Positions 3,562 through 60,950 of a DNA stretch of 64,000 bases are shown here, piece by piece. Each line of letters starts with the position of its first letter. Position 1 is the first letter of the stretch. Source of the stretch: a virus. The stretch is from positions 32,887-96,886 of the IMG/VR virus record IMGVR_UViG_3300001097_000002, one strand, 5' to 3'. A model generated the notes under the pieces. The model did no database searches, was not told the DNA's origin, and saw nothing but the letters and a program-made list of their open reading frames with translations. Made by a program: the position numbers and the translations under genes.

Positions 3562-4038
3562 ATGCAAACAGAACACATAACCGCGGAAAATTATCAATAT
3601 AAGTTACCATTTGACAATAAAGAAGGCAAAGACGTTTTTCGGTACATACCGCATGCACCAGAGATTGAGGATGTTGACGAGGATTTTAAAGAAAAGAACT
3701 GCTATAAGAACGATACTTTTATTAGGGGTGCGTATGTCAGTTACCCATACACTAAAGAACATCTTGATGAAATGAAACGTTGCAAAGACGATTCTTTTTA
3801 CTTTATCCAAAATTACGTAAGAATTAACACGCTTGATTATGGTGTACGGTTATTTGACCCTTTCCAGTATCAGAAAAATATGATTAAGATGATGGACGAA
3901 AATCGTTTTACAATATTTACAACTTCACGCCAAGCGGGTAAATGCGTGCACGGTACTACTGAAATAACAGTGCGTAATAAAACCACTGGCTTGATAGAAA
4001 CAGTTGAGATAGAAGATTTCTTTTCGCGTTTTGAGTAA
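3562..4038 (+). CDS. Terminase large subunit fragment 1 fused to N-half of a split intein
   Basis: Residues 1-127 match the N-terminus of T4 gp17-type terminase ATPases, ending in the Walker A region FTTSRQAGK. Instead of the expected Thr/Ser the frame continues with Cys128 and a 31-residue segment (CVHGTTEITV..IETVEIEDFF) that has intein block A features, then stops. It resembles the very short N-inteins of atypically split terminase inteins of the AceL-TerL type. Excision would require a separate C-intein followed by Cys and the rest of the ATPase. The other terminase fragments lie 45 kb away (49009-50987), and the segment that should follow this one is not in the window. Confidence 0.9.
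   Translation: MQTEHITAENYQYKLPFDNKEGKDVFRYIPHAPEIEDVDEDFKEKNCYKNDTFIRGAYVSYPYTKEHLDEMKRCKDDSFYFIQNYVRINTLDYGVRLFDPFQYQKNMIKMMDENRFTIFTTSRQAGKCVHGTTEITVRNKTTGLIETVEIEDFFSRFE
3943..4035 (+). other. Split intein N-half (intein 1, Walker A site)
   Basis: 31 residues starting at Cys128 of the fragment, inserted after the Gly-Lys of Walker A. Block A is visible (C-x4-T-x-I/V and a following IETVEIEDF strand). Its C-half partner is not in the window. The C-intein at 49009 cannot be its productive partner: joining them would fuse Walker A directly to Walker B and delete the intervening ATPase segment. Confidence 0.85.
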
Positions 4039-6044: not shown

Positions 6045-6073
6045 ACTATACACGTATAACTATGAGATGTCAA
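6045..6073 (-). promoter_or_regulatory. Sigma70-type early promoter
   Basis: Minus strand TTGACA (6068-6073), 17-nt spacer, TATAGT (6045-6050). It overlaps the upstream edge of the rightward gp4-like gene, favouring ATG 6082 over 6067 for that gene. Confidence 0.65.
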
Positions 6074-6081
6074 TAACTATT

Positions 6082-6543
6082 ATGGCTGGATATCCTAAAC
6101 CAAAAAGGTTCAAACCCGAAAACCCGAAAAAATATGTTGGTAAAGTAAATGACATTATCAGTCGTAGCAGTTGGGAAACAAAAATGTTCCATTGGTGTGA
6201 CAACAACCCTAGCGTGGTACGTTGGAACAGCGAGGATGTTATTATACCATACTTTAGCAATGCTGACGGTAAAATGCGCAAATACCATATTGATGTTTAC
6301 GCTGCTATTAAAATGAAAGACGGCAGCGTAAAACAATACATTATAGAAATAAAACCTTACGAGCAAACGATTAAACCAAAAATGCGCGGACGTAAGAAAA
6401 AAGAAACATATCTAAAAGAATGCTATACATTCCAAGTTAATACTGACAAGTGGCAACATGCAACGGCATGGGCTAAGCAAAACGATATGGAATTTATCAT
6501 AATGGATGAATATTCACTTGGTCTAAAAAAGAGAAAACCATAA
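6082..6543 (+). CDS. 4: Head completion nuclease, T4 gp4-like
   Basis: About 153 residues. The pattern PENPKKYVG, SSWE, WNSEDVIIPY, DVYAAI and IIEIKP matches T4 gp4 (gp50), a head-completion protein with a TnsA-like endonuclease core: the acidic residues of DVYA and the E-x-K of IIEIKP form the PD-(D/E)XK site. It is thought to act on DNA ends or heads after packaging. An upstream in-frame ATG at 6067 would add five residues; neither start has a strong ribosome site. A CTAAATAAC late-like box lies about 40 nt upstream. Confidence 0.85.
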   Translation: MAGYPKPKRFKPENPKKYVGKVNDIISRSSWETKMFHWCDNNPSVVRWNSEDVIIPYFSNADGKMRKYHIDVYAAIKMKDGSVKQYIIEIKPYEQTIKPKMRGRKKKETYLKECYTFQVNTDKWQHATAWAKQNDMEFIIMDEYSLGLKKRKP

Positions 6544-8803: not shown

Positions 8804-10295
8804 TTAAAAGAATGTTTTTCTGTTATGTGATTTCTTCTTGCCTACGCTTGTATCCTCAGTGGTTACATTAGCGCTTGCAACTAGACCATTATCAATATTT
8901 TCTCCATCACCAAACTTAAATATTGAACCTGAATGACGAATGTTATAATTTAATAGTTTAGTAAATGATTCAAGCGGACGCATAAACGTCACTTCAAACA
9001 TATTTTTTCTGTCTATGTAATTGTCAAGATTAAACTCCTTTGGTAATTCATCAGGATAACCAATTACAGTTGAGTTAAGTGGATTTCCGTCTACTAGGTC
9101 AAGGTACTTAATTTTACTGCCGCTTTTGATTATGGGGTGGTTCTTAGTATGGATATCACTACTTCTAACAAAGTTGTTATATGTTATAGCAGCGCGTACA
9201 TGTTTAGGACAACGCTTGATAGGTTGATTGTTTTCGTCACTCCATTTCTCAATCCCGTTAACACCTTTTGGATATGCAATTTTATTAGGATGTAGGTTTT
9301 TATAATCATTTCTAAATCCCTTAACATACTTGCGCAAACCGTCCTCGTCGCGTGTAACCATATATTTAATACATTCTGTTAGGCTGTTACGTATGACCGC
9401 AGGTGTAGAAGTCCTATTGGTTTCAATACCAAGCATTTTAAGTTTAGGCTCTGTATAACGTACGTGCTCCATATCATATACGTTTAATATATAGTTCTTT
9501 TTAGCTCGGAAAATAGCACAATCACAAATTGCCTCGCGTTTCATTATCAATCTGTTTTCCATACCGTTTAAGTATTCTGATAACTCACCGTAAGATTTTT
9601 CTATAAATGGTTCAATATTATCATGTACGTATTCGTCAATTATTGTTATTACTTCATTAGTATCAGTATTGACTGGTAAACTGTCAACCAATGGTGCAAC
9701 TGTAAAATATAGACTATCAGTGTCACCATAAATTGTATAGTCTATATTATTAGTTTTAAATTGTTCATTTAAAAAACCATTAAGCTTTTTCTCCATATAT
9801 TTAATTGCCAATTGACCTGTAGACGTAACAGCTTCTGCTATCTCACGTTTGAAATAACGAAAGCCTTCATTTCCAATCGCACCATAACCCAAGATATTAA
9901 TTCTGAACCGATAACTAACCTCAGAATAAAAGTATTTTACTACTTTTGCAACATGTCACCATGTTGATTAGACTATATCATGACCCATTCTCCAGGGCCC
10001 TCACCGTTTCCAATACTCTTGTATTGTACTCTACTAACTGCGATTAAGCGCTTTCGATAGTCGTTGCACGCATCCCGTAGGACTTTGTACATGATTGTCT
10101 TATTGTGGCTCAATAAGAGTTCCCATGTTTAGATGAGTTATTCACTTACACATTACCATGTAAGGCAGCAGTCTTGTTTTACTTGCTTTTACTGTTTGCA
10201 AGAATCTTGTAGGCGTATTGTAGTGCGTCTTCTCTGCTAACATCGTTCTCTAATTCAGCTATGCGTTTATTAATAGACGCAATATCTTTATACAT
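8804..10295 (-). CDS. 43: DNA polymerase (family B) C-terminal fragment, split by a group I intron
   Basis: Two exons. Exon 1 (10295 to 10191) starts at an ATG preceded by AAGGA and encodes 35 residues ending YKILANS. Exon 2 (9889 to 8804) continues GYGAIGNEGFRYF. Joined, they restore the family B motif equivalent to T4 gp43 KILINSLYGALGN. Motif C follows as IYGDTDSLYF, then the thumb and the C-terminal clamp-binding end. Combined length about 396 residues. The remaining polymerase is encoded at 10391-11113 and 16624-17823. The start at 10295 overlaps, in another frame, the 38-residue ORF upstream. Confidence 0.85.
9890..10190 (-). ncRNA. Group I intron (IA2-like, td type) in the polymerase gene
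   Basis: About 301 nt without an ORF. Core elements line up with the T4 td intron: a P2 hairpin CTTACA...TGTAAG, then CATCTAAACATGGGAAC, ACGACTATCG, GATATAGTC and AACATGGTGACATGTT near the 3' end. The 5' exon ends CAGT, which can pair with GCTG downstream (terminal U-G pair). The intron ends in G before GGT. Splicing at these points restores the conserved polymerase frame. The insertion lies in a DNA segment encoding the highly conserved motif B, typical of phage introns. Confidence 0.9.
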
Positions 10296-10404
10296 ACTTT
10301 AAATATTCCTTATCTTTTGATACGATTGGATTATCGTAATTAAATATGTAACGTTTATCAGTATATTGTTGATACATAATAAACTTAATATCACTTAATT
10401 CCAT
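10288..10404 (-). CDS. Polymerase fingers segment in a shifted frame (38 residues)
   Basis: MELSDIKFIMYQQYTDKRYI.. lies between the palm fragment (stop at 10391) and the C-terminal fragment (start 10295) and overlaps both out of frame by a few nucleotides. Its length and place fit the missing fingers-region segment of a T4-like polymerase. Each junction needs a +1 shift. It may be translated by reinitiation, by frameshifting, or be the footprint of two single-base insertions (mutational or sequencing). Confidence 0.5.
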   Translation of the reverse strand: MELSDIKFIMYQQYTDKRYIFNYDNPIVSKDKEYLKYV

Positions 10405-11113
10405 CTTTAATCATATCCTCTCTGAGAGCATATAACTTTTGTAACTCTCTTTCGCTGTCTTTCATACCACTCTTAATAACACTACGAGTATCAAACAAGT
10501 TTTCCATAGTGGCTGCAATAACACCAATTTTGTCTTTTGAATACAATGTACCATTAGCAGCAAGGCAATAATCTTTTTCGTGTGCTATTTTGGTACTATA
10601 TTTCATATCTATCATACTGTTTAATATATCGTCTACGTGCTCCTTTGATTTCATCACAAGAGTTTCAGCGCTCATGTTTAGCATCATTATGATAGATGGA
10701 TACAAGCTTTTTAAATCGCCACTAACAACCCAGTCAGTGCGTCCTAATACAGGTTCTTTAACGTGACCACCCATATAACTTTCACCGCCCTCAGCGTATA
10801 CTTTAGGAGGTATGACAATGCTATCTCTATCAAGTCTAGCGTAAATCATATTGTCCCATGGTTGCACGGTTGCAAAAATATCACTTGGGTTACTACGGCT
10901 TACGTGTGCAAATGATAACGCCACCTGAATAAAGTTTAGCTTGTTATCAAGTTTAGATATTAATACAGTATCAGTCTCGTTATAGTCAATAAATGTGTTG
11001 AAGCTGTCCTGTTTAACTTTTTGGTTAACATCATCATATAATTTCTTAAGCTGTTCAAAACTCAACTTGTCAAGATGGTTCTCGACAAGCATTTCATACT
11101 TTTTTAAATTCAT
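10391..11113 (-). CDS. 43: DNA polymerase (family B) palm fragment
   Basis: 240 residues. After a 33-residue N-terminal extension without obvious homology (MNLKKYEMLVENHLDKLS), the protein joins the T4 gp43 pattern: IDYNETDTVLISKLD, a region matching the WDAIIF segment, and motif A SGDLKSLYPSI with the catalytic aspartate. It ends LREDMIKDGIK before the motif B region. The exonuclease part is encoded 5.5 kb upstream (16624-17823), so the protein must assemble from pieces or be non-functional. Confidence 0.85.
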   Translation of the reverse strand: MNLKKYEMLVENHLDKLSFEQLKKLYDDVNQKVKQDSFNTFIDYNETDTVLISKLDNKLNFIQVALSFAHVSRSNPSDIFATVQPWDNMIYARLDRDSIVIPPKVYAEGGESYMGGHVKEPVLGRTDWVVSGDLKSLYPSIIMMLNMSAETLVMKSKEHVDDILNSMIDMKYSTKIAHEKDYCLAANGTLYSKDKIGVIAATMENLFDTRSVIKSGMKDSERELQKLYALREDMIKDGIK

Positions 11114-11134
11114 ATATCACCAATGTTAGATGTT

Positions 11135-11165
11135 AAAAAAGGGCACCTAATTATTATAGGCGCCC
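11135..11165 (-). terminator. Rho-independent terminator
   Basis: On the minus strand GGGCGCCTA pairs with TAGGTGCCC, followed by six T. It separates the 11204-16634 block from the palm fragment of the polymerase. Confidence 0.7.
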
Positions 11166-11203
11166 ATTAGTATAACATAAAATTTTATAATAGCAAGATA
11201 TAA

Positions 11204-11464
11204 TTAGATTTGCAATTTCAATTTATTAGCAGCACAATACGCACGCATAGCTTCATCAAGCAAAAGTTTATTATAACCAATCTCTATTGAATACATGTCA
11301 TTTACTAGCACCAGCGGCACTAAATTACCTTTCATATCAACATTAACCTTTGCGATAGGTTTTATATTAGTATCAAAAGTTGTCTTAGTTATATATTTCA
11401 TATCATGGTTTTTATCAAAATGATATAGAATGATAAAATCATCTGCGTTTGGTTTGTAGCTCAT
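11204..11464 (-). CDS. Hypothetical protein, 86 residues
   Basis: I choose ATG 11464 (MSYKPNADDFIILYHFDKN), which has GGAG 7 nt upstream. Beta-rich pattern with a helical C-terminus (LDEAMRAYCAANK). No family recognised. Confidence 0.6.
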   Translation of the reverse strand: MSYKPNADDFIILYHFDKNHDMKYITKTTFDTNIKPIAKVNVDMKGNLVPLVLVNDMYSIEIGYNKLLLDEAMRAYCAANKLKLQI

Positions 11465-11491
11465 ATAATACTCCAAATAATAAATTAGTTT

Positions 11492-12106
11492 TTATAGATA
11501 GTCTACGATAGTATTACCTGGCGTTCCGAACATAATTTTCGTATGTTGACCACCACCAAGTTCACGACTGTAAAAATACTCTGCTAGCTCTGGATACTTC
11601 TTAGGATAAGCCGGGTCGACATGTTCAGTGTTCAGTTTCTTACCTAGAATATCGCGTGCGTCATCAACTGTCTGTGCATACTTAATCGCTTCTGACATAC
11701 CAATTGAGCGCACAACAAATTTGAGCATACCGGCACTAGTTTCACCCATTGAACGGTCAAATTCATTAGATACCAAATCAGCCAACGCAATCGCGCCTTG
11801 CTTTGTTTGGTTTGTGAAACTAGCTACTGACTTACGACCATTTTTGTCTTTGTACAACTTACCGGCAATGATTTCACCGTTTTTTCGAATCAGTTTCCAA
11901 AACGTAATATTAAGCATATCTTCAGGACTATCAAAACCAGACCCTTTAATACCACCAATCTTAGCATATGAGCGTTGAACTAAGTCCCATACTACTAACT
12001 TGTGTTTTTCTTTCTTCTCGTTATCACCAATGATATTAATGTAACGTTCGTTAAGGTCGTTACCACTATCGCGTTCATGTAAGTAATCTTCAAATGCAAC
12101 TGTCAT
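11492..12106 (-). CDS. Putative internal head protein with acetyltransferase-like body
   Basis: 204 residues. The N-terminus MTVAFEDYLHERDSGNDLNE has the F-x-x-Y-L signal and the L-N-E site (after Glu20) shared with other predicted packaged proteins; the P1' residue here is Arg rather than Ala/Ser/Gly. The body (AYKIGGIKGSGFDSPED-like pattern, FWKLIRKNGEIIAGKLYKDK) resembles GNAT-like proteins found in T4-like phages, but I cannot verify catalytic residues. Inference: an enzyme delivered with the phage DNA. Confidence 0.65.
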   Translation of the reverse strand: MTVAFEDYLHERDSGNDLNERYINIIGDNEKKEKHKLVVWDLVQRSYAKIGGIKGSGFDSPEDMLNITFWKLIRKNGEIIAGKLYKDKNGRKSVASFTNQTKQGAIALADLVSNEFDRSMGETSAGMLKFVVRSIGMSEAIKYAQTVDDARDILGKKLNTEHVDPAYPKKYPELAEYFYSRELGGGQHTKIMFGTPGNTIVDYL

Positions 12107-12128
12107 TATTTATTCCTTTCTTAGTTTA

Positions 12129-12653
12129 TCAAGATAATACTGGATATTTATACTTTCCGACGTCCTGAATCCCATCAATTATATCAGGGGTCCGGCAAAT
12201 ACGATGGTGTCCATTGTCAAAGTATTTAACGTCATAGTTATCAGGGAAGTTATCAAATACGGCTTTAACTCCATTGTAATCAATGACTTCATCATCTTTC
12301 TCAACCAATACAGCAACATCTGCCTTACTTGGAATGAATTTAGTATTGTCATCGCAAATCTCAGGACGGTTCAATGTTGGGTTAATACAAGGACTAATCA
12401 ATACCGCATTATGTCCATATTTTACACTCATTGCGTTTGCAATGTAAGCGCCCATACTGTGACCAACAACAATAACGTCTTCATAATCACTCAAATCTTC
12501 AACCGCTTTACTAGCAATTGCGAGGGCGTTCTCCAAGCCATCATCATAGTCGATTGCAACAGCAACCTTATTAGTGAAAATGATATTAGTGAATTTGTCA
12601 GTATTAACACTACTGCCATATCCGTGAAAAAACAAAATGATAGAATCTTTCAT
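12129..12653 (-). CDS. Alpha/beta hydrolase (YqiA/esterase-like)
   Basis: 174 residues with the fold's signature: an oxyanion His-Gly (FFHGYGSS, residues 9-16), the nucleophile elbow GHSMGA (Ser66), an acidic residue near LVEKDDEVID and a C-terminal histidine in FDNGHHRI. Likely a serine esterase or thioesterase; substrate unknown. It has its own promoter (12676-12704) and lies in the accessory block between the polymerase pieces. Confidence 0.85.
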   Translation of the reverse strand: MKDSIILFFHGYGSSVNTDKFTNIIFTNKVAVAIDYDDGLENALAIASKAVEDLSDYEDVIVVGHSMGAYIANAMSVKYGHNAVLISPCINPTLNRPEICDDNTKFIPSKADVAVLVEKDDEVIDYNGVKAVFDNFPDNYDVKYFDNGHHRICRTPDIIDGIQDVGKYKYPVLS

Positions 12654-12675
12654 TAACTTATCTCCTTAAAGATTT

Positions 12676-12704
12676 ATTATAACATAATATATACTATGGC
12701 ACAA
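12676..12704 (-). promoter_or_regulatory. Sigma70-type promoter for the hydrolase gene
   Basis: Minus strand TTGTGC (12699-12704), 17-nt spacer, TATAAT (12676-12681). The -35 box is weak, the -10 box perfect. Confidence 0.5.
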
Positions 12705-12715
12705 CCGTAGAACCC

Positions 12716-13120
12716 TTACAATTGCGCGTATGTGAAATCATCAAGTTCATCAATAACACATTGTAAACCATTATCTTTGAAACGGTTGTAAAAGTAATTA
12801 ACTTCCTTTGAACTCAAATTATACCCTATGGATAAATCATGAAGAAACTTAGAAGTTAGTTTTGATTTCTTGGAATTATACTCGCACACGGCCGCTTTAA
12901 AGTCATCTTCAGCAACGACAACTTCGCGCACTGAATAATCAATAACAGTTTCGCGGACAATGGCTTTTTTAACGCCTAACATATCATAGTAAACATATGC
13001 ACCTTCAACCGTTTCGCGCATGCCTACAACTCGACCTAACTTGTAATAGTAGATGGTTGTGAACATTGACTGTGTTGGTACTGGTGTATCGTTCATTGTA
13101 TATTTATCTAAGTTATTCAT
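12716..13120 (-). CDS. Hypothetical early protein, 134 residues
   Basis: Starts at ATG 13120 (MNNLDKYTMNDTPVPTQ) behind AGGAG. N-terminal half beta-rich (TTIYYYKLGRVVGMRE), C-terminal half helical with SKEVNYFYNRFKDNG. No family recognised. Confidence 0.6.
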   Translation of the reverse strand: MNNLDKYTMNDTPVPTQSMFTTIYYYKLGRVVGMRETVEGAYVYYDMLGVKKAIVRETVIDYSVREVVVAEDDFKAAVCEYNSKKSKLTSKFLHDLSIGYNLSSKEVNYFYNRFKDNGLQCVIDELDDFTYAQL

Positions 13121-13181
13121 AATAATTCTCCTATCATTTAAACTGTTTCTCAAAACTACCACTAAATTATATAACAGCCAC

Positions 13182-13217
13182 AAAAAAGTGTAAAGCTATA
13201 TTACATAACTTTACACT
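13182..13217 (-). terminator. Rho-independent terminator
   Basis: Stem AGTGTAAAG/CTTTACACT with a T-run on the minus strand, directly after the gene ending at 13230. Confidence 0.7.
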
Positions 13218-13229
13218 CAATGATTTAAA

Positions 13230-13661
13230 TTAAATTGTTTCGACTGATTGATAATCAATAACAGTAATAGGTACAGGTTTAACTTCAAAGTATTCAGTAC
13301 CGTCAGTATCAAATCCGTAATAACTTTCGTAATACCCGTGACATAACAGATATCTACCACTAGGCATATGTTTTACTACTTGTTCCCAATGGTCACCGTC
13401 GCCTTCTCCGCCTTGACGCCTAACAATTTCGTATAACGTTTTTTCATCAAACGCACGTAACTTGTCTTCTAGCGCATCAGTACGTTCTCGCATTTCTACT
13501 CTATCGTCACCGTTAGTTTCAACAAAATCACTAAATTGATACATAAATTCGTCTGCAAAAAATACTCTAAGCTCATTCATAACATCTTTAAAAGTTTCAA
13601 ATGATAATTCTTTACCATGTACCATTTCTTCAAGTGTGCTGATAACGTCTTCGAATTCCAT
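13230..13661 (-). CDS. Hypothetical early protein with repeated C-terminal module
   Basis: 143 residues; acidic helical N-terminus. The C-terminus reads YFEVKPVPITVIDY, a module also seen at the C-termini of the proteins at 14223, 14604 and 15870 (W/F-x-x-V-x-P...Y). Preceded by AGGAAA 8 nt before the ATG. Function unknown. Confidence 0.6.
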   Translation of the reverse strand: MEFEDVISTLEEMVHGKELSFETFKDVMNELRVFFADEFMYQFSDFVETNGDDRVEMRERTDALEDKLRAFDEKTLYEIVRRQGGEGDGDHWEQVVKHMPSGRYLLCHGYYESYYGFDTDGTEYFEVKPVPITVIDYQSVETI

Positions 13662-13716
13662 AGTGTTTTCCTTTTTGATAAAATTATATGTTACTAGTTT
13701 TTAACTACATTGTCAA

Positions 13717-14064
13717 TTATAATATATAGCAATCTGCACTATCAAGATGATACTTATTAACCATTACTTTTTCCTGTATTACTTTATCCCATTTATCATG
13801 TACCCACATTTCACTATACAGTTCTTCAAAGCGCGATTGTTGATAATACTCGCCACTGACTTTATCAACATATATGTTAAAGTCAAAATAACTGCCGTGT
13901 TCAAATGACTCTACATATTCCATGCGCTCGTCAAACGCATTGACATCATCCATGAGCAAATAGCAAACAGTTACATCATATGCAAACTTTGTGCGTAATA
14001 CCAGTAAGACTTCTTGTGGTAGCATATATTCACGGTTAATAAAACGATTATATAATTCTCTCAT
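13717..14064 (-). CDS. Hypothetical early protein, 115 residues
   Basis: MRELYNRFINREYMLPQEVL...; rich in Tyr, Phe, Asp and Glu, with a compact helical appearance. No motif recognised. One of a series of tightly spaced leftward small genes. Confidence 0.6.
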   Translation of the reverse strand: MRELYNRFINREYMLPQEVLLVLRTKFAYDVTVCYLLMDDVNAFDERMEYVESFEHGSYFDFNIYVDKVSGEYYQQSRFEELYSEMWVHDKWDKVIQEKVMVNKYHLDSADCYIL

Positions 14065-14073
14065 AACATAAGC

Positions 14074-14226
14074 CTAAATGTTGGTGTATTGGGTAACAGT
14101 AACTTCAGCGGTTTCGTATTGATATAATTGCACCAAATCAATGCAACAACCATCCATCAACACAAATAACATATCATCACGTGCTAGTTCTTTGTTGTTT
14201 AAGAAATCGTTAATTAAGTTTTTCAT
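14074..14226 (-). CDS. Small hypothetical protein, 50 residues
   Basis: ATG 14226 overlaps the stop of the gene at 14223-14426. The product begins MKNLINDFLNNKELARDDML and contains Cys-Cys (DGCCIDL). Coupled position supports translation; function unknown. Confidence 0.5.
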   Translation of the reverse strand: MKNLINDFLNNKELARDDMLFVLMDGCCIDLVQLYQYETAEVTVTQYTNI

Positions 14227-14426
14227 AATGTTCGACACTCGTATTGTACATTTACAAGCTCTACTTTATCCCAATACTCCCAGTTTTCTGCTGTGCCATT
14301 AAGTCTATATAAGAAACCAAATGATTTAATGATAATATAGTTATAAGGCCCTTCCATTGATACGTCAATAATTTCAATGGTGTCAAGTGAAATAACATGA
14401 TGCATATATTTACATGCGTCTGTCAT
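14223..14426 (-). CDS. Hypothetical small protein, 67 residues
   Basis: MTDACKYMHHVISLDTIEII.. A beta-rich protein with the C-terminal WDKVELVNVQYE module related to its neighbours. TTG at 14429 is an alternative start. Confidence 0.55.
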   Translation of the reverse strand: MTDACKYMHHVISLDTIEIIDVSMEGPYNYIIIKSFGFLYRLNGTAENWEYWDKVELVNVQYECRTL

Positions 14427-14464
14427 CAATTTCTTATCTCTTACATCAAACAGAACATTATTGT

Positions 14465-14563
14465 TTAAAAATTCAGCACCACTAAACTATGTTCAACAGA
14501 CATTCTGGCGCACACGATGTGACGTTGTTCTTTTGATAATCCTGCTAATTCATAACTACTCAT
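14465..14563 (-). CDS. Small ORF, 32 residues
   Basis: MSSYELAGLSKEQRHIVCAR.. with GGAG 7 nt before the ATG. It fills the only gap between adjacent leftward genes. Support is the ribosome site and position only. Confidence 0.4.
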   Translation of the reverse strand: MSSYELAGLSKEQRHIVCARMSVEHSLVVLNF

Positions 14564-14603
14564 AATCATTCTCCAATAATAAAATTTATATTAAACAGTA
14601 TTG

Positions 14604-14975
14604 CTAGTACGGAGTATATACTGTTATTGTTTTTTCATGCGGCATAACTCTAGTCCAATTACCTATTTCGTATGATAGTGTATCGTATATCCTGTTAGGA
14701 TACGTAAACATATAATATACATCAGTATGTATACATTGCACAACTAAACAATCCTCTTCATCATCATCGCTACCTATAGACTCATATTCAAACATATTCC
14801 AAAATGCTTCATATAGTAACGAATGGTTAACAATAATATCATCAACGATTACCGTCTCAATTGTATCAGCATCATTTAAATCAATTTTTACAAGCGTGTT
14901 TAACAAATCAAGCAAGTCAATATTTTGCATTCTTTCATTTGCTAAAAACAAACCTAGTCTATCTAAAATATTCAT
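14604..14975 (-). CDS. Hypothetical early protein, 123 residues
   Basis: Acidic protein; helical N-terminus (LDRLGLFLANERM) and a beta-rich C-terminus ending WTRVMPHEKTITVY, the recurring C-terminal module. The start overlaps the stop of the nucleotidyltransferase-like gene. Confidence 0.6.
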   Translation of the reverse strand: MNILDRLGLFLANERMQNIDLLDLLNTLVKIDLNDADTIETVIVDDIIVNHSLLYEAFWNMFEYESIGSDDDEEDCLVVQCIHTDVYYMFTYPNRIYDTLSYEIGNWTRVMPHEKTITVYTPY

Positions 14976-15883
14976 AATGAAAACTCCAATGATAAAATTT
15001 TACGATAATAGAACGGGTCAAATGCATCAATAATATCTGAGTAATTATCAATAGCAAACGCTCTAAAGAAACCACTTGCTAAGTCAGTACATACACGCAT
15101 CAATGCCCACATAAAAGAGCTTCTAGCGTAATATTCTTTACTGTCATTTACTAGTTTTGGAATGATGCATCGTTCACTAGCAATCACGTAACACTCTTCT
15201 AATACAGTTTGCACTTTTTCTAATTGTGTGAACTTATTCCATAAATGCTTGTAACATAACACTTCTCCGTTCTTCTGCATTTTATTATACATGGGTTTAT
15301 CATTATGTGCAAACACTTCATGCAAATAATCATGTTCGATATATTTCTTAACACCATCATCAAAAAAATGTTCTTTAGTAACATTTAGTTTAGGCAACTT
15401 TTGCGCACCAAGTCGCAAGTCTGTATCAATTCTTTGCGTTCTGATTAACTCGCTCACTGTGTATGCGCTTGTTCCATATTGTTCATCATCAGTTAAACCA
15501 CGTACTCGGTTTAACTGTACGAGGTCACTCATATGCTTATCCCATTTACGCATACGTTGGTGGATATGACCACGTTTGATAATGTATAGCATAGTTGTAT
15601 CAGCAAGGCTAATAGGCGCCCTGTAATAGGCGTTATATAGCTCTGCTAGTGTATTATCATATGCTACCAATAGTTCAATACGCTGCTCACCATCATTAAA
15701 TGGGATAATGCTGTCTTTAGATATCTTATCCCTAAAACGATACGGAATGTCTTTTGGCATAACCACAACATCCAAATCAGCTTTTGTTCTATCATCAAGA
15801 ACAGTAATCGCTTGGCTACCAACAACAATACCGTTATAAATACCGTTACTATGTAACAGCGCTTTTATATCATGAATATTCAT
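14972..15883 (-). CDS. Nucleotidyltransferase-like protein, 303 residues
   Basis: The N-terminal region has a nucleotidyltransferase pattern: GSQAITVL followed by KADLDVVVM (G-S ... D-x-D), with a possible third acidic residue in RIELLV. The rest is helical with several Tyr/His-rich stretches. Phages carry such NTase-fold proteins with poorly known roles (toxin/antitoxin-like, RNA end modification). Start ATG 15883 lies inside the upstream gene, indicating coupling. Catalysis is not proven by sequence. Confidence 0.6.
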   Translation of the reverse strand: MNIHDIKALLHSNGIYNGIVVGSQAITVLDDRTKADLDVVVMPKDIPYRFRDKISKDSIIPFNDGEQRIELLVAYDNTLAELYNAYYRAPISLADTTMLYIIKRGHIHQRMRKWDKHMSDLVQLNRVRGLTDDEQYGTSAYTVSELIRTQRIDTDLRLGAQKLPKLNVTKEHFFDDGVKKYIEHDYLHEVFAHNDKPMYNKMQKNGEVLCYKHLWNKFTQLEKVQTVLEECYVIASERCIIPKLVNDSKEYYARSSFMWALMRVCTDLASGFFRAFAIDNYSDIIDAFDPFYYRKILSLEFSL

Positions 15884-16151
15884 AAATCACCCTTGTTACT
15901 GGTTTAACTTCATACCATTCTTGTTCGTTGAATATGATGTGTGTACCATTGCGTGTATGTTGATAATAGCCGTTTTGTCGATAATGTTTACCATCATATG
16001 TGATAATCATATACGCTTGACTATCAGTCAATATTTCTATAGCCGTACATTCAGCGCGTTCAACCATGGTATCATTAATCATGACACCATATTCAACGCT
16101 TGCGTGAACTAGATGTTTATTGAGTTTATCCAAAAATTCGTCCTGTAACAT
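15870..16151 (-). CDS. Hypothetical early protein, 93 residues
   Basis: MLQDEFLDKLNKHLVHASVE.. with a C-terminus WYEVKPVTRVIYEY that matches the module at 13230, 14223 and 14604. GGAGG 5-6 nt upstream of the ATG is a strong ribosome site. Confidence 0.6.
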   Translation of the reverse strand: MLQDEFLDKLNKHLVHASVEYGVMINDTMVERAECTAIEILTDSQAYMIITYDGKHYRQNGYYQHTRNGTHIIFNEQEWYEVKPVTRVIYEYS

Positions 16152-16163
16152 AATCCCTCCAAT

Positions 16164-16196
16164 AAAAAAGTGACATACGAAATCATCTTATGCCAC
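16164..16196 (-). terminator. Rho-independent terminator
   Basis: GTGGCATAAG pairs with CGTATGTCAC (wobble pairs) followed by a T-run on the minus strand, downstream of the gene ending at 16230. Confidence 0.6.
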
Positions 16197-16229
16197 AATT
16201 ATAACAAATTATTGATGCGCTGTAAAGGT

Positions 16230-16634
16230 CTAAAACAAATCAACTATATTCTCAGAAAGTATTCTTGCGAAATCACCATCTAACGGTTTTGAGTTATACA
16301 CCATATTGTGCTTGATTTCAGCAATTGACAATCCTGACGGTTTAGATAGTTCTACTGCTAATGCGTTAACATTTCGCAGCGCAACATCATTAATTATATT
16401 ATCCTCGTTTTCTGCGCAATACTCCCATAATGTCATCAGTAATTCAGTAGTCATCATTTCAGCATATGCTAAGTTTTTAAACTGATAAGACATAACAATT
16501 GCTCTGGCGGTTGGCCTATACATTGTAACCGATACACCACTAAAATTTGATAATTGCATCGCCACTTCTATTTGATATTGTAGGCTAACAATCAAGTCGC
16601 CATCATCAAACTTAACAATTTCTTTAAATGTCAT
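16230..16634 (-). CDS. Hypothetical protein, 134 residues
   Basis: Mostly helical protein (MTFKEIVKFDDGDLIVSLQY). Its start overlaps the 3' end of the polymerase exonuclease fragment by 11 nt, so it is coupled to it. It might help the split polymerase, but nothing in the sequence shows this. Confidence 0.55.
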   Translation of the reverse strand: MTFKEIVKFDDGDLIVSLQYQIEVAMQLSNFSGVSVTMYRPTARAIVMSYQFKNLAYAEMMTTELLMTLWEYCAENEDNIINDVALRNVNALAVELSKPSGLSIAEIKHNMVYNSKPLDGDFARILSENIVDLF

Positions 16635-17823
16635 TGTTCTCCTCCAACATCATATCAAGTCTTGTGGCAACCATAGTTCTAATCCTTGCCCATCGGTCTT
16701 TTTCTGGTAGTTCTTCAATGTTTGTTTCTTCTGGTAGTTCTTCAATGTTTGTTTCTTCTGGTATATCATACACACCACAATACAAGTTCATTAGACTGTC
16801 TTTGTATTCGCTATAATTTACTTTTTTCTCGCCAAGCTCAACATCAGAAATATGGTCAAGTGTATATCGTTCTTGCTTAGCCTTTGCGTACTGTTTATAT
16901 AATGCCATATAGTCTAAATGAGTAAGACCAAAGATATTATATTCTAATGATGGTGCTCGCTTGTTTTCTTTAATAACGTTCTTACCGTATGCACTAAATG
17001 GACTTAGTTTATTAGTAACAGCGTTACCTACAATCTTTCTAGCGCGAGTTACAAGATATGGTATATCAAATAACACACCAAACCAACTAGTGATAAAGTC
17101 AAACTGTTCGTCTACAAAAACGTTGATAAATGCCGTAATCAGTTCTTTCTCATTTCTACATTGTAGATACTCAATATCCGATTTTCCAGTATACCCTTTT
17201 AATCCAAGTCCGCCTGTTTTAACAATGTTATGTCCAACGATAACTTGATAGGTGATACTAAGAATTTCAGCAATTGCATCCTCGGGTTTCGGAAAGCCGA
17301 TGTTCTGGTCAGCATACGTAGAGTCTTTATACCAAACCATTTTTTTATAGAACGGGTCCATCACTTTAATATCAGCAAGATTATCGAAGTTTTTAATTTG
17401 TTTGTAAAATGCTTCTTTAGTTGGACCCTTACCTTCTTTATATACAACGGTGTCGAAATTCGTATATGTAAAACCATCACCATGATTAACTTCAATATCA
17501 AAGGATATCGTTTTATACAAAGGTTCGTCCACGCTTACTTCTTCATACTCCTTTGATATAAATTGCTGTATAGGTGAAGTGTTTCCGAATATATTTTCCA
17601 TTTGGTTGTTGTGTACGAAATCATTAAGCTTATATATAGTATCAAATTCGATACGTTTTAACTTGTCACCATACAAACTAATATAGTCTCCACTTATACT
17701 TTTTGTGAATAGTTCATATGGATAGTTTTTTACAATCTCAATATGACGTTCACCATCTTGTATATAACGATGAAACAGCGTGTCGCCCATTGTTCCCACG
17801 AACGTATAATACCGCTTACTCAT
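16624..17823 (-). CDS. 43: DNA polymerase (family B) N-terminal and exonuclease fragment
   Basis: 399 residues covering the N-terminal and 3'-5' exonuclease domains of a T4 gp43-type polymerase: Exo I SFDIEVNHGDGF, Exo II region GHNIV / SWFGVLFDIPYL, Exo III TLDHISDVELG. It stops after NYSEYKDSLMNLY, where T4 gp43 runs on into the palm. Then comes about 50 residues of extra tail with two tandem EETNIEELP repeats and a charged helical end (RIRTMVATRLDMMLEENNDI). The palm fragment (10391-11113) also has an added N-terminal extension; the tails may dock the two proteins. No intein motifs are seen at this break. Confidence 0.9.
   Translation of the reverse strand: MSKRYYTFVGTMGDTLFHRYIQDGERHIEIVKNYPYELFTKSISGDYISLYGDKLKRIEFDTIYKLNDFVHNNQMENIFGNTSPIQQFISKEYEEVSVDEPLYKTISFDIEVNHGDGFTYTNFDTVVYKEGKGPTKEAFYKQIKNFDNLADIKVMDPFYKKMVWYKDSTYADQNIGFPKPEDAIAEILSITYQVIVGHNIVKTGGLGLKGYTGKSDIEYLQCRNEKELITAFINVFVDEQFDFITSWFGVLFDIPYLVTRARKIVGNAVTNKLSPFSAYGKNVIKENKRAPSLEYNIFGLTHLDYMALYKQYAKAKQERYTLDHISDVELGEKKVNYSEYKDSLMNLYCGVYDIPEETNIEELPEETNIEELPEKDRWARIRTMVATRLDMMLEENNDI
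16703..16756. repeat. 27-bp tandem repeat, two copies, inside a coding region
   Basis: Two exact 27-bp units (16703-16729, 16730-16756) followed by a partial third. They encode the doubled EETNIEELP in the tail of the polymerase exonuclease fragment. Confidence 0.9.
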
Positions 17824-46264: not shown

Positions 46265-47113
46265 ATGATTATTTTTGACACTTCATCAATTGCATACAGC
46301 ATGCTATATCAGCTTGATAATCAGGATATTGGTTTGCTTCGACATGCAATATTAAATAAAATCGGTTATATAATGCGTGAATTAAAACAGTATGATAATT
46401 GCACAAAAGAAGTCATTCTTGCATGCGATTCACGTGGTAACTGGAGAAAAGAAATATTTGCCCCTTACAAGGCAAGCCGTAAGAAAAATCGAGAATCCAC
46501 TAGTGATGTTGACTGGGGTAAATTCTTTCTTGATTTCAATGCGCTAATTGATGAATTTAGAACTAATATGCCTTTTAAGGTTTTGTTAGTTGACCGTGCG
46601 GAGGCTGATGATATTATTGCCGTATTATGCCAACAGCGTAGTGATGATAACATTACTATTGTAAGTCCTGATAAAGACTTTAGACAGTTATGCAAGCCCA
46701 ATAGCAACGTAAAACTATATAGTCCAATAGGTAAGACTGGATTTATTGATGCTACGGATTATGAGCTATTTGAGCATGTAATGACTGGTGATTCGTCTGA
46801 TGGTGTTCCAAATATTTTGAGTGAAGGTACTGTATTCATTGATGGTATTCGTCAAACAACATTGACCGCTAAGAAAAAGCAAATACTAAAAGATTTTAAA
46901 TTCAATATTGATAATGCACCAATCATGACTGATGCAATTAAAGAACGTATTGATATGAACACACAGCTTATTGACCTTGCATATGTGCCCAAGGATATCG
47001 TTGAGAATGTACTTGAACAATATGACAGCGCAAAAGTACCAAAAGGTAAAGTTTTTAACTATTTTGTAAAAAACAAATTAACAAAAATCATGGAGAGTGG
47101 TATATATAAGTAA
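46265..47113 (+). CDS. rnh: RNase H / 5'-3' exonuclease (T4 Rnh, FEN family)
   Basis: 282 residues from ATG 46265 (AGGAT upstream). Acidic metal sites: FDTSSIAYS, CDSRGNWRKEIFAPYKASRK, RAEADDIIAV, SPDKDFRQL and TGDSSDGVPN, the hallmark order of T4 RNase H. Its last codons lie inside the 79-bp tandem repeat. Confidence 0.93.
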   Translation: MIIFDTSSIAYSMLYQLDNQDIGLLRHAILNKIGYIMRELKQYDNCTKEVILACDSRGNWRKEIFAPYKASRKKNRESTSDVDWGKFFLDFNALIDEFRTNMPFKVLLVDRAEADDIIAVLCQQRSDDNITIVSPDKDFRQLCKPNSNVKLYSPIGKTGFIDATDYELFEHVMTGDSSDGVPNILSEGTVFIDGIRQTTLTAKKKQILKDFKFNIDNAPIMTDAIKERIDMNTQLIDLAYVPKDIVENVLEQYDSAKVPKGKVFNYFVKNKLTKIMESGIYK

Positions 47114-47152
47114 TAGTATTCAAGTAAATAACATTATACTTTTACAATAAAG

Positions 47153-47181
47153 TTGACAACCACCTACTATATTGCTATACT
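47153..47181 (+). promoter_or_regulatory. Strong sigma70 promoter, copy 1
   Basis: TTGACA (47153-47158), 17-nt spacer, TATACT (47176-47181). Confidence 0.75.
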
Positions 47182-47231
47182 TATATAAGTAATAGTATTC
47201 AAGTAAATAACATTATACTTTTACAATAAAG

Positions 47232-47260
47232 TTGACAACCACCTACTATATTGCTATACT
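47232..47260 (+). promoter_or_regulatory. Strong sigma70 promoter, copy 2
   Basis: TTGACA (47232-47237), 17-nt spacer, TATACT (47255-47260). About 40 nt before the ATG at 47301. Confidence 0.75.
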
Positions 47261-47300
47261 TATATAGTAAATTAAATAACACTTAAAAAGGAATAACATT

Positions 47301-49008: not shown

Positions 49009-49365
49009 ATGGACATAAAATCATATGATTCTTTTGCATCAAACTCTAATTTCAACATTCTAACAGATGATGGATACAAACATTTTAGTGGTGTTACAAA
49101 GTCACTATTAGTTGACCCGCCTATTGAATTAACGCTCAATAACGGTGAAATAATTGTGTGCACCATCAACCACAAATTATACGTAACTAAAGACAAATGG
49201 GTATATGCTAAGTTTTTAAATGTTGGTGATACACTATACAGCCCTTTTAATAAGGTGCGCATAACAGCTATTGGTGACAGTAAAGAACGTTACGTGTACG
49301 ATATAATAGATGTAACAGATACTAGCAGTTACCTAGTAACACCGTACATGATTAAAAGTAGCAAT
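49009..49365 (+). other. Split intein C-half (intein 2, before Walker B)
   Basis: 119 residues ending Ser-Ser-Asn before the Cys of CLYLDE. The usual penultimate His is replaced by Ser. Its N-half is not in the window. It is inserted at a different terminase site from intein 1. Confidence 0.85.
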
Positions 49366-49731
49366 TGCTTATACTTAGACGAATTTGCGTTTGTTGAAAA
49401 TGACGTAGAATTCTATACTGGTACATATCCTACAGTAACATCTGGTAAAAACACAAAGGTCATCATTACTTCCACGCCACGTGGTTTGAACATGTTCTAT
49501 AAAATCTTTAATGATTCTCAACAAGGTAATAACAAATACAAGTCATATAAAATCGGTTGGGAGGAGCATCCTGAGCGCGATGAAGAATGGTACTTAGAAA
49601 CCAAATCTAACATCGGTGAGTCAAAATTTTCCGTGGAATATGAGAGTTTGGCACACGAAACTATAGTAAGTATAAATGATAATAACACACTAACAAGTAT
49701 GTGCATTGGAGATTTATATGACTATATGTAA
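49009..49731 (+). CDS. Terminase large subunit fragment 3, flanked by two split-intein halves
   Basis: 240 residues in three parts. 1-119: a C-intein (DDGYKHFSG, block B CTINHKLYV, block F YVYDIIDV, end KSSN). 120-212: terminase extein starting CLYLDEFAFV (Walker B plus catalytic Glu) and including VIITSTPRGLN (coupling motif), ending FSVEYE. 213-240: an N-intein starting SLAHETIVSI. Protein splicing at both ends would join this middle piece to its neighbours. The upstream neighbour carrying the segment between Walker A and Walker B is not in the window; the downstream neighbour is the next gene. Confidence 0.92.
   Translation: MDIKSYDSFASNSNFNILTDDGYKHFSGVTKSLLVDPPIELTLNNGEIIVCTINHKLYVTKDKWVYAKFLNVGDTLYSPFNKVRITAIGDSKERYVYDIIDVTDTSSYLVTPYMIKSSNCLYLDEFAFVENDVEFYTGTYPTVTSGKNTKVIITSTPRGLNMFYKIFNDSQQGNNKYKSYKIGWEEHPERDEEWYLETKSNIGESKFSVEYESLAHETIVSINDNNTLTSMCIGDLYDYM
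49645..49728 (+). other. Split intein N-half (intein 3), Ser1 type
   Basis: 28 residues SLAHETIVSINDNNTLTSMC.. beginning with Ser instead of Cys, with block A H-E-T-I-V. It follows extein FSVEYE. Partner at 49815-50165, only 86 nt downstream. Confidence 0.85.
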
Positions 49732-49814
49732 TAGTGATTTGATTGAGACAGTAGAAATCTTAGCGGCATTTGGATTACCACTCTAATCAAGTGTCTCGAA
49801 TTTTTGGAGTTGGT
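49732..49814 (+). other. Gap between the two halves of intein 3
   Basis: 83 nt with stops in the intein frames. The region upstream of ATG 49815 can be read DYHSNQVSRIFGVG from a TTG, which faintly resembles a helix-turn-helix. It may be the scar of a lost endonuclease domain or just leader. Confidence 0.35.
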
Positions 49815-50165
49815 ATGAGCAAAGTACATCTAGGGTTTAAAAAGAACACTAAAAATTTAAAAGTGTTAACACCAAATGGACACGAAGAATTCTACGGAAT
49901 AAACAAAATACGTGTCGATGAATATATACGAATAAAATTCAAAGAACATAAAGAAATACGTTGCTCGATTGACCACCCGTTTATACAAGAAAATGATTTA
50001 CCAATAAAAGCAAAACATATTGATAAAAGCAAACATATAAAATGTATTGATGGATTTACTACTTTAGAGTATTCGCATGTTGTTAATAAACAAATTGAAC
50101 TATATGATATTGTAAACTCTGGTAGTGAGTACATATATTTTTCTAATGGGATATTAAGTCACAAC
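49815..50165 (+). other. Split intein C-half (intein 3)
   Basis: 117 residues: NLKVLTPNGHEEFYGINKI, block B CSIDHPF, block F ELYDIVN, end NGILSHN before Cys. Very like the C-intein of the atypically split AceL-TerL intein (NIKILSPNG.., SINHPF, NGVVSHN as I recall it). Confidence 0.88.
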
Positions 50166-50987
50166 TGTAAATTCATGGGTTCTGCAGGTACACTTATTAA
50201 TGGACGTACACTAGAACTATTATCATATAGTGAACCATTGCGTGAAACCGACCACAGACACAAAACAATCCGCGTGTATGCAGAACCTGTGGAATCACAC
50301 AAGTATGTAACCATTGTTGATACTAGTGAAGGTGTACAGCTTGATTTTAGTGTTATCACTGTTATTGACGTTTCTAAAATGCCTTACAAACAAGTATTCA
50401 TGTACAAGGATAATACCACCCCACCAATCACGTTTACTAGTATTGGTGCAGAAGTAGCGGAACGTTATAATAGCAGTGTAATGCTTGTAGAAAATAATAA
50501 CAGTAGTGGTGGTATTGTTGCAAACGGGTTGTGGTACGATATCGAGTATGAGAATATGCTAACCACAAAAGTAGCAGTAAATACACGTGATACCGAAATT
50601 GGTTTTGATAACAAAAGTATACCGGGTGTTAGAACCACCAAAAAAACAAAAGCCGTTGGTTGTACATACCTCAAAAACTTAATAGAAAGCAATCAGCTTG
50701 AAATTGTTGATTATGACACTGTGGCGGAATTAACAACGTTTGTTCGCGTAGGAAAAAGTTATGAAGCTGAAAAGAACAAACATGATGATATTGTTATGAC
50801 GCTTGTTATGTTTGCATGGTTTACATCACAGGATTATTTTGAGGATGAAACTGGCATTAGTTCATTAAGTGATATGAATGATACGTTGATGGAAGATAAC
50901 GACATGGACTTTGTGCTTGGCTTTATCAGCAACGGCACGGAGAAAAATGAAGAAGTTGATTTATTTGATAAGGGCTTGTTTAATTAG
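49815..50987 (+). CDS. Terminase large subunit fragment 4, preceded by C-half of split intein
   Basis: Start ATG 49815 with GGAG 6 nt upstream (a TTG at 49770 is an alternative). Residues 1-117 are a C-intein; Cys118 begins the extein CKFMGSAGTLINGRTLELL. After joining with FSVEYE, the sequence lines up gaplessly with T4 gp17 around FEGTSGTLISG. The 273-residue extein carries the nuclease domain: TIVDTSEGVQLDFSVI (catalytic Asp), ENNNSSGG, and KNKHDDIVMTLVM with the C-terminal Asp pair. Confidence 0.93.
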   Translation: MSKVHLGFKKNTKNLKVLTPNGHEEFYGINKIRVDEYIRIKFKEHKEIRCSIDHPFIQENDLPIKAKHIDKSKHIKCIDGFTTLEYSHVVNKQIELYDIVNSGSEYIYFSNGILSHNCKFMGSAGTLINGRTLELLSYSEPLRETDHRHKTIRVYAEPVESHKYVTIVDTSEGVQLDFSVITVIDVSKMPYKQVFMYKDNTTPPITFTSIGAEVAERYNSSVMLVENNNSSGGIVANGLWYDIEYENMLTTKVAVNTRDTEIGFDNKSIPGVRTTKKTKAVGCTYLKNLIESNQLEIVDYDTVAELTTFVRVGKSYEAEKNKHDDIVMTLVMFAWFTSQDYFEDETGISSLSDMNDTLMEDNDMDFVLGFISNGTEKNEEVDLFDKGLFN

Positions 50988-59519: not shown

Positions 59520-60950
59520 TTATAATTTAACATATACTATATTACCACAGTCCCATAATTTATATAAGTTATCAGCATTAAGCATATCAGGATTATTAAT
59601 ACCTTTAAACCTACTGAATATGTCTCTGGTTGAGCTATTATAATAAGTATGCGATGGTTCAGATGTATGCGTTTGCACAAATCCGCAAGTATTATATACA
59701 TTACCAGTGCTAAAACGTCTATTTGCATAACTTAATATACTACCATTAATTGCACTTAAAATTTTACTCATGCCACCAACCACTATAGTATTAATACTAT
59801 TACAATATCTTACCATCTCATAGTCATACTTTTTATTAAAGCGTGGCGTCATAAACGTACCAATAGCAACCAATTCATCATTATAGTATAGTCCTTTATT
59901 AATTTTACTAGATGACATACCCTGTATATGATTATCAACAATAAACTGCATAGCATCATTATATGCAACATCGCGCATGATACATTTTCTTGCGTATACT
60001 TTATTATCAATTAAACCCAGCTTCGCTTTAATCATTGATTTTACAATATCAAAATGCTCAATAATTTCATAATCCCAAAAATGTAAAAGTGCTATATTAT
60101 TGTCTAAGCAACCGGTTGTCTTTTTAAGGTGGTACTTAGTGTCTTTAATAAACTTATCGCTGTGCCAATACACGCCATTACATTCAATAGCTAAATTATA
60201 TTCGGGTATGTATATATCAAGTTCTCTATTACCTAATACTGTATAATCACCGTGTATAAAATCAATCCCTAAGCTTTCAATAAAATCAACTAATAATTTT
60301 TCTGGGAATGAAGTAGTAAATGATTTGTTGGTTGCTGCACCATGACGTCTAAATGTTTTTTTAATTGTACCTCTACTGCATCCTATTTCATATGCAATTT
60401 GTTCTAAAGATTTAGTCTCGTTTTCAACCTTTAAAAACTCGATATCATTCGCTATCTCTCTGTCAAAACCATTATAGTTCCATCTATCGCATGTACCTCC
60501 ATATAACGATTGCTGTTCACTATGACTACGCTGTTCTATACCATGTTCACGCATACGCGTAGTTACCGTGACATTACTACACTCATATAACTCTCCTATA
60601 ATCTCAGGTTGTAACTTTGCAATATTATACAAATATTCAAGTTCAGTTTTTGGTATATCAACTTTGTGTGGTTGTATGCCTTCAGTGCGATACGTATACC
60701 CGCAAGCCTTAGAACATGTATCAGTAAATTCACCGTTCCCTTTCATTTTTGTTGGTGTATCACATATAACACACAATCCATCAAGGTCAAATATAATGAG
60801 TTTAATACATTCTTTAAATGAGCGTTCTAGATTAAACGTGCTAACATATTCGTGTATATTGGGGCTATGTTTTTTAATATAGTTCTCCCCGCAGCGCTTA
60901 GGGTTTACGTCACCATTTATACTAACTAATTCTAATAGTTGTGATTTCAC
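59520..60950 (-). CDS. Vsr-like (EDxHD) free-standing homing endonuclease
   Basis: 476 residues on the strand opposite the capsid gene. N-terminal Cys-rich zinc motif (CVICDTPT..CSKAC), a helix-turn-helix region SLEQIAYEIGCSRGTIKKTF, and a nuclease core GNRELDIYIPEYNLAIECNG-VYWHSD resembling very-short-patch-repair enzymes. This fold was reported with fractured genes and split inteins in phage metagenomes, making it relevant to the split terminase here. No intron is seen in the adjacent genes. Confidence 0.8.
   Translation of the reverse strand: MKSQLLELVSINGDVNPKRCGENYIKKHSPNIHEYVSTFNLERSFKECIKLIIFDLDGLCVICDTPTKMKGNGEFTDTCSKACGYTYRTEGIQPHKVDIPKTELEYLYNIAKLQPEIIGELYECSNVTVTTRMREHGIEQRSHSEQQSLYGGTCDRWNYNGFDREIANDIEFLKVENETKSLEQIAYEIGCSRGTIKKTFRRHGAATNKSFTTSFPEKLLVDFIESLGIDFIHGDYTVLGNRELDIYIPEYNLAIECNGVYWHSDKFIKDTKYHLKKTTGCLDNNIALLHFWDYEIIEHFDIVKSMIKAKLGLIDNKVYARKCIMRDVAYNDAMQFIVDNHIQGMSSSKINKGLYYNDELVAIGTFMTPRFNKKYDYEMVRYCNSINTIVVGGMSKILSAINGSILSYANRRFSTGNVYNTCGFVQTHTSEPSHTYYNSSTRDIFSRFKGINNPDMLNADNLYKLWDCGNIVYVKL

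What the first reader, a model, noticed from the sequence alone, without database searches (positions are those of the whole stretch)
49366..50200. Intein chemistry is non-canonical: Ser1 start and Ser-Asn end
Intein 3 begins with Ser (SLAHETIV) rather than Cys yet ends His-Asn before Cys; intein 2 ends Ser-Ser-Asn, lacking the penultimate His. Both deviate from standard class 1 inteins and could have unusual rates or specificity. Joining FSVEYE with CKFMGSAGTL gives a gapless T4-like sequence, so the splice points are well fixed.
Basis: partly seen in the sequence, partly recalled or inferred. Interest (0 to 1): 0.7.

Follow-up and report, generated by a model that had tools for sequence, protein, structure and literature searches.

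The report
Split-intein phage packaging motor, Ser1 junction
A phage's DNA-packaging motor is made in pieces that inteins (self-splicing protein segments) should join; one intein starts with serine instead of cysteine and another lacks the usual last histidine, both rare but already known or recurring in relatives, so this is a good new example rather than new chemistry.

Summary
The residues are as described. The window is part of a 96.9-kb T4-like phage contig whose large terminase (TerL, gp17) is fractured by atypically split inteins: a short N-half, and a long C-half on the next fragment.

Intein 3 starts with Ser1 (49645) and ends His-Asn before Cys+1 (50165/50166). It is homologous to the Cat (AceL/GOS-TerL consensus) intein. 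Ser1/Cys+1 is documented for GOS-TerL. I found two more TerL examples (L022, L200) among 22 distinct inteins at this insertion site; the other 19 are Cys1. All 22 lack the NX histidine reported for Ser1/Ser+1 and Ser1/Thr+1 inteins.

Intein 2 ends Ser-Ser-Asn before Cys. Its junction is fixed by eight relatives at the same Walker B site. There the last two residues vary (SN, KN, KQ, NQ, QQ, EQ, HQ, HN, HN): only 3 of 9 keep the penultimate His and 5 of 9 end in Gln. Its N-half is not in the contig. It also lacks the block-F His and has two extra residues before the junction.

Both remain class 1 by definition. Verdict: real; a new member of a known kind. The site-2 series and the apparently four-piece TerL are the more interesting parts. 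Splicing is inferred, not shown.

The parts
3562..3942 (+). TerL (gp17) fragment 1: N-terminus to Walker A (...SRQAGK)
   Evidence: phmmer to T4 gp17 E=1.6e-12; ends at Lys166 of 3ezk
3943..4035 (+). IntN1 (31 aa, Cys1: CVHGTTEITVRNKTTGLIETVEIEDFFSRFE), stop 4036-4038
   Evidence: up to 52% identical to IntN halves of other TerL inteins; same Walker A site split in L023 and L027
49009..49365 (+). IntC2 (119 aa) ending YMIKSSN; penultimate Ser, terminal Asn
   Evidence: Cat intein E=7e-5; Hint fold, best PDB 6dsl; junction shared with 8 relatives
49366..49644 (+). TerL fragment 3 extein: Cys+1, Walker B (CLYLDEFAF) to FSVEYE
   Evidence: T4 gp17 E=5.7e-11; Leu after the Cys aligns with residue 252
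49645..49728 (+). IntN3 (28 aa, Ser1: SLAHETIVSINDNNTLTSMCIGDLYDYM), stop 49729-49731
   Evidence: aligned position and length (26-35 aa) as in the other split relatives apart from L023
49815..50165 (+). IntC3 (117 aa) ending GILSHN; GGAG ribosome site at 49806-49809
   Evidence: Cat intein E=1.5e-16; predicted Hint fold, best PDB hit 6dsl E=5e-9
50166..50984 (+). TerL fragment 4: Cys+1 (CKFMGSAGTL...) and nuclease domain
   Evidence: RB49 gp17 nuclease E=3.8e-33; Pfam Terminase_6C

Best explanation
The phage's TerL gene is fractured at three conserved places: Walker A, Walker B and the ATPase-nuclease junction. Each break is an atypically split class 1 intein. Fragments are translated separately; a short IntN docks on the long IntC of the next fragment, the Hint fold closes, and the exteins are joined. 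Intein 3 uses Ser1: N-O acyl shift to an oxoester at FSVEYE|S, then transfer to Cys+1 of CKFMG as a thioester, Asn cyclisation helped by the penultimate His, and an S-N shift to the peptide bond. This is the GOS-TerL route. Intein 2 most likely uses Cys1 (on the missing fragment 2) and Cys+1; its Asn cyclises without penultimate or block-F His, probably slowly, as in other inteins that have lost these residues. Shown: sequence anatomy, homology, insertion sites, shared junction residues, predicted fold. Inferred: that splicing occurs, its rate, and the existence of fragment 2.
For: Homology of both C-halves to the Cat TerL intein. Empty-site TerLs in relatives. 22 distinct site-3 inteins, three Ser1/Cys+1: window, L022, L200. 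Ser1/Cys+1 splicing described for GOS-TerL. Nine distinct site-2 inteins including the window's, sharing the junction RGxSxN|C ... |CLYLDE wherever the N side is available. Walker A split inteins with Thr+1 in L023 and L027, including fragments of the form IntC1-extein-IntN3. Catalytic His of block B, Asp of block F and terminal His-Asn of intein 3 are invariant with relatives. TerL fragments 3 and 4 lie just upstream of ORFs taken to be the tail genes, the place where TerL sits in annotated phage relatives.
Against: No fragment 2 (IntC1, Walker A to B, IntN2) is found anywhere in the 96.9-kb contig; the contig is incomplete, so this is absence of data. Cys1 to Ser inactivates the close homologue AceL-TerL, so Ser1 could in principle be a damaging change. 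Intein 2 lacks both histidines that assist step 3 and has a two-residue insertion before the junction. No expression or protein data exist.
Confidence: 0.77

Rival explanations
1. Ser1 of intein 3 is a recent inactivating change (Cys to Ser, one base) and the TerL fragments now work without splicing, by non-covalent assembly across the ATPase-nuclease junction, or the phage lineage is failing.
For: Ser (AGT) is one base from Cys (TGT). The same change kills AceL-TerL splicing. Site 3 lies near T4 residue 354, between the two TerL domains.
Against: Two further TerL inteins at this site have Ser1 with Cys+1, and the window groups with one of them (94/90 support), so Ser1 has probably persisted. 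Ser1/Cys+1 splices in GOS-TerL. Other catalytic positions and both reading frames are intact.
Confidence: 0.13
2. Intein 2 is degenerate at its C-terminus (no penultimate His, no block-F His, two extra residues) and does not splice. Its fragments act uncut, or C-terminal cleavage is all that remains.
For: The alignment shows the two-residue insertion directly before SSN. In plain gapless alignment to L102/L103 the conserved HN|C falls on K-S|S. The partner half is missing.
Against: Asn and Cys+1 sit exactly where eight relatives have N or Q and Cys. Five of those eight also lack penultimate His, so the site tolerates this. About 5% of functional inteins lack it.
Confidence: 0.25
3. The stop between IntN3 and IntC3 is a sequencing or frameshift error and the intein is really contiguous.
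For: Only 83 bases separate the two ORFs. Contiguous versions exist at this site (L008, L034, L036, L038).
Against: Identical in a second contig over 11 kb. The halves have the lengths of other naturally split relatives (IntN 28 vs 26-35 aa, L023 excepted; IntC 117 vs 110-132 aa). IntC3 has its own ATG and ribosome site. The frames differ, with stops between.
Confidence: 0.03

Closest known systems
GOS-TerL split intein (Bachmann and Mootz; reviewed in PMC11766414)
   Same: TerL host, atypical split with short IntN, Ser1 with Cys+1, class 1
AceL-TerL and Cat (PDB 6dsl) inteins
   Same: Same intein family (IntC3 about 40% identical in the structural match, E 1.5e-16 by sequence); Cys+1; Cat keeps the penultimate His and has no NX His
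   Different: Cys1 in both; the C1S form of AceL-TerL is reported inactive
PolB16 OarG and other Ser1/Ser+1 or Ser1/Thr+1 inteins (PMC10189870)
   Same: Ser1; PolB16 is also atypically split with a short IntN
   Different: Those carry R/K-His in motif NX. Intein 3 has Asn-Lys there, L022 Asn-Lys, L200 Val-Gln. +1 is Cys, not Ser/Thr.
Npu DnaE split intein (PDB 4lx3, 2keq)
   Same: Ends Ser-Asn, as does intein 2 (its Cys+1 is from general knowledge)
   Different: Split at the usual place; keeps a block-F His (...RDHNF...) that intein 2 lacks
Inteins ending in Gln (Pab Pol II, CIV RNR; PMC4031507)
   Same: Show that loss of C-terminal consensus residues is survivable; five of the nine site-2 TerL inteins end in Gln
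   Different: Intein 2 itself keeps Asn

Membership tests
Class 1 intein (intein 3) | Cys/Ser/Thr at position 1 and at +1, terminal Asn | tested here: met
   Ser1 49645, Asn 50163-50165, Cys+1 50166; definition from PMC4031507
Class 1 intein (intein 3) | Block B [T/S]xxH and block F Asp | tested here: met
   CSIDH and LYDIV; His54 and Asp98 invariant among 10 sequences
Class 1 intein (intein 3) | Splices its exteins | not testable with these tools
   No bench work possible
Class 3 intein | Cys at block F position 4 and no nucleophile at position 1 | tested here: not met
   Asp at that position and Ser1 present
Atypically split TerL intein (AceL/GOS-TerL type) | Insertion in TerL directly before C-x-F-x-G-S | tested here: met
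   Same junction in relatives, and intein-free TerLs run through it. That AceL/GOS-TerL sit at this exact site is from memory and the Cat match, not tested.
Atypically split TerL intein (AceL/GOS-TerL type) | IntN of about 25-37 aa, IntC of about 104-115 aa on a separate ORF | tested here: met
   28 aa and 117 aa; separate ORFs 83 bases apart; published lengths
Ser1/Ser(Thr)+1 'cysteine-less' intein group with motif NX | R/K-His 23 residues before the block B His | tested here: not met
   Intein 3 has Asn-Lys at that place; spacing taken from 2cw7 and the PolB16 numbers; table
Class 1 intein (intein 2) | Cys/Ser/Thr at position 1 | tested here: inconclusive
   IntN2 not in the contig; Cys1 in the eight site-2 relatives with the same junction
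Class 1 intein (intein 2) | Terminal Asn (or Gln) and +1 nucleophile at a conserved host site | tested here: met
   SSN|CLYLDE aligned with KN, KQ, NQ, QQ, EQ, HQ, HN, HN |C[LV]
Class 1 intein (intein 2) | Penultimate His (common, not required) | tested here: not met
   Ser at that position; block-F His also Ser

The most novel reading that the evidence does not exclude
Two linked readings. (a) The Walker B site of TerL holds a set of split inteins in which C-terminal catalysis has repeatedly drifted (Ser-Asn, Lys-Asn, Lys-Gln, Asn-Gln, Gln-Gln, Glu-Gln), with intein 2 lacking both step-3 histidines and carrying a two-residue extension, so Asn/Gln cyclisation there is supported by something else. 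(b) Ser1/Cys+1 TerL inteins activate Ser1 without the NX histidine, a separate solution from other Ser1 inteins. In this phage three such inteins must act to build one motor from four pieces, the first encoded 45 kb from the last.
Probability: 0.3. Interest if true: 0.62.

Novelty: new member of a known kind. Interest (0 to 1): 0.45.

Why it matters
Ser1/Cys+1 inteins with a short IntN are rare and useful for peptide labelling. This adds three natural sequences (window, L022, L200) to the published GOS-TerL. The nine site-2 inteins form a natural series at one insertion site in which the last two residues vary while host context and +1 residue stay nearly fixed, a direct way to test what catalyses the last cleavage step. 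A TerL with three split inteins would be a natural case of multi-part protein assembly.

Tried and rejected
Fragment 2 was looked for in the whole 96.9-kb contig by tblastn, motif search and an HMM of 41 TerL middle regions: no hit beyond fragment 3. It was also sought in IMG/VR through a pattern for the Walker A intein: other phages only.

Considered and dropped: that the intein 2 junction is K-S|S, as the gapless alignment to L102/L103 suggested. Those two are inserted two residues upstream; eight other loci share the window's exact site.

Considered and dropped: that Ser1 implies class 3 chemistry (the block F position holds Asp).

A genome-contig scan with a Walker A intein found nothing. 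NCBIfam intein models were below cut-off and Pfam Intein_splicing sub-threshold, so profile libraries alone would have missed these. Seventeen isolated-phage records match IntC3; in the six examined, a motif scan showed no Ser1 example, but the scan did not recover every junction.

The original GOS-TerL paper is not held.

Full report
What is there. The window is bases 32887-96886 of a 96,886-bp IMG/VR virus record. Upstream of ORFs I take to be T4-like tail genes lies a fractured terminase large subunit (TerL). The piece at 49009-49731 holds the C-half of one intein, a TerL stretch beginning at Walker B, and the N-half of another. The piece from ATG 49815 to 50987 holds the matching C-half and the TerL nuclease domain. 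The N-terminal TerL piece with its own intein N-half lies at 3562-4038, about 45 kb away. Mapped on T4 gp17, the breaks are after Lys166 (Walker A), before about residue 251 (Walker B) and before about residue 354 (ATPase-nuclease junction).

Intein 3: FSVEYE | Ser1 ... His-Asn | Cys+1. Intein 2... Ser-Ser-Asn | Cys+1. A second IMG/VR contig is identical over 11,170 bp across both. Intein-free TerLs run through site 3 without a gap.

Intein 3 is an ordinary member of a known family with a rare nucleophile pair. Its C-half matches the Cat intein, the AceL/GOS-TerL consensus, at E 1.5e-16, and the predicted fold matches the same entry best (6dsl, E 5e-9). The review PMC11766414 describes GOS-TerL as an atypically split TerL intein with Ser1 and Cys+1, active at 2.4-4.6 x 10^-3 per second, and notes that the same pair inactivates AceL-TerL. 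I collected 22 distinct inteins at this site, counting the window's: 19 Cys1 and three Ser1 (window, L022, L200), all with Cys+1. The window and L022 group together (94/90); L200 is unplaced, so one or two origins of Ser1 are possible. Three of the Cys1 members end Ser-Asn (L205, L210, L213), so a Ser-Asn end also recurs within this family.

Ser1 inteins with Ser/Thr+1 carry a histidine (motif NX) close to Ser1 that is needed for splicing (PMC10189870). It lies 23 residues before the block B His in 2cw7, consistent with the PolB16 numbering after its insertion is subtracted. At that place intein 3 has Asn-Lys, L022 Asn-Lys and L200 Val-Gln, and none of the 22 site-3 inteins has His. Ser1/Cys+1 TerL inteins therefore seem to activate Ser1 without it. 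This is an inference from alignment.

Intein 2. Its N-half is not in the contig, so the junction cannot be proved from this sequence. Gapless alignment to two relatives (L102, L103) even put the junction two residues upstream. A wider search settled it: eight distinct loci have inteins at exactly the window's site, with N sides RGx(S/T)x(N/T/Q)|C, all Cys1, and C sides |C(L/V) followed by Walker B. Their last two residues are KN, KQ, NQ, QQ, EQ, HQ, HN and HN; with the window's SN, only three of nine keep the penultimate His and five of nine end in Gln. For comparison, about 5% of functional inteins lack the penultimate His (PMC4031507). Intein 2 also has Ser at the block-F His position and two extra residues before SSN. 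So it is unusual, but in a group where this is common. The nine are related to one another, so they are not nine independent losses.

How it most likely works. Each fragment is made separately. IntN binds IntC, the Hint fold closes, and class 1 splicing joins the exteins; three such joins would build one TerL. The tests show anatomy and homology only. Splicing, rate and the existence of fragment 2 are inferred. Fragment 2 is made plausible by L023 and L027, where a fragment of the form IntC1-extein-IntN3 exists with Thr+1 at Walker A.

Comparison and verdict. By the published definition intein 3 is class 1, and intein 2 fits as far as it can be read. Ser1/Cys+1 is known from GOS-TerL; Ser-Asn ends are known from Npu DnaE. 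I could not compare directly with the GOS-TerL sequence. New here are two further Ser1/Cys+1 examples besides the window's, the missing NX His in that group, and the variable C-termini at the Walker B site. I rate it a new member of a known kind with moderate interest.

Noticed in passing
window 9949-10218 (-): Group I intron (RF00028, 61.8 bits, E 4.7e-15) inside the family B DNA polymerase gene, between ...YKILANS and YGAIGN...; the whole-window Rfam scan missed it.
   Followed up: partly
window 8804-17823 (-): The DNA polymerase gene is itself in separate parts: exonuclease part 16624-17823 and polymerase parts 10391-11113 and 8804-9892, with about 5.5 kb of other genes between the exonuclease and polymerase parts.
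   Followed up: no
L102 (1095-2660) and L103: A second Walker B intein site two residues upstream (RGxS|CNLIYLDE); the ORF with the N-half runs on into what looks like a GIY-YIG endonuclease.
   Followed up: partly
L022 and L008, TerL Walker A: Contiguous inteins starting with Ala and ending THN|S or THN|T with a Cys in the block F region, as in class 3 inteins, inserted after GK of Walker A.
   Followed up: no
L182-L192: Split P-loop inteins sharing the motif EVFVKDLxxGD occur in TerL, in a gp41-like helicase and in a ClpA-like ATPase, suggesting spread among P-loop genes.
   Followed up: no
window 59520-60950 (-): 476-aa ORF with a weak Vsr endonuclease match (E 3e-4), among structural genes; may be a free-standing homing endonuclease.
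   Followed up: no
window 6067-6543 (+): TnsA-like endonuclease N-terminal domain (E 6e-16), 158 aa.
   Followed up: no
window 47103-47270: Tandem repeat of a 79-bp unit (2.1 copies, 98% matches) in a gap between ORFs.
   Followed up: no
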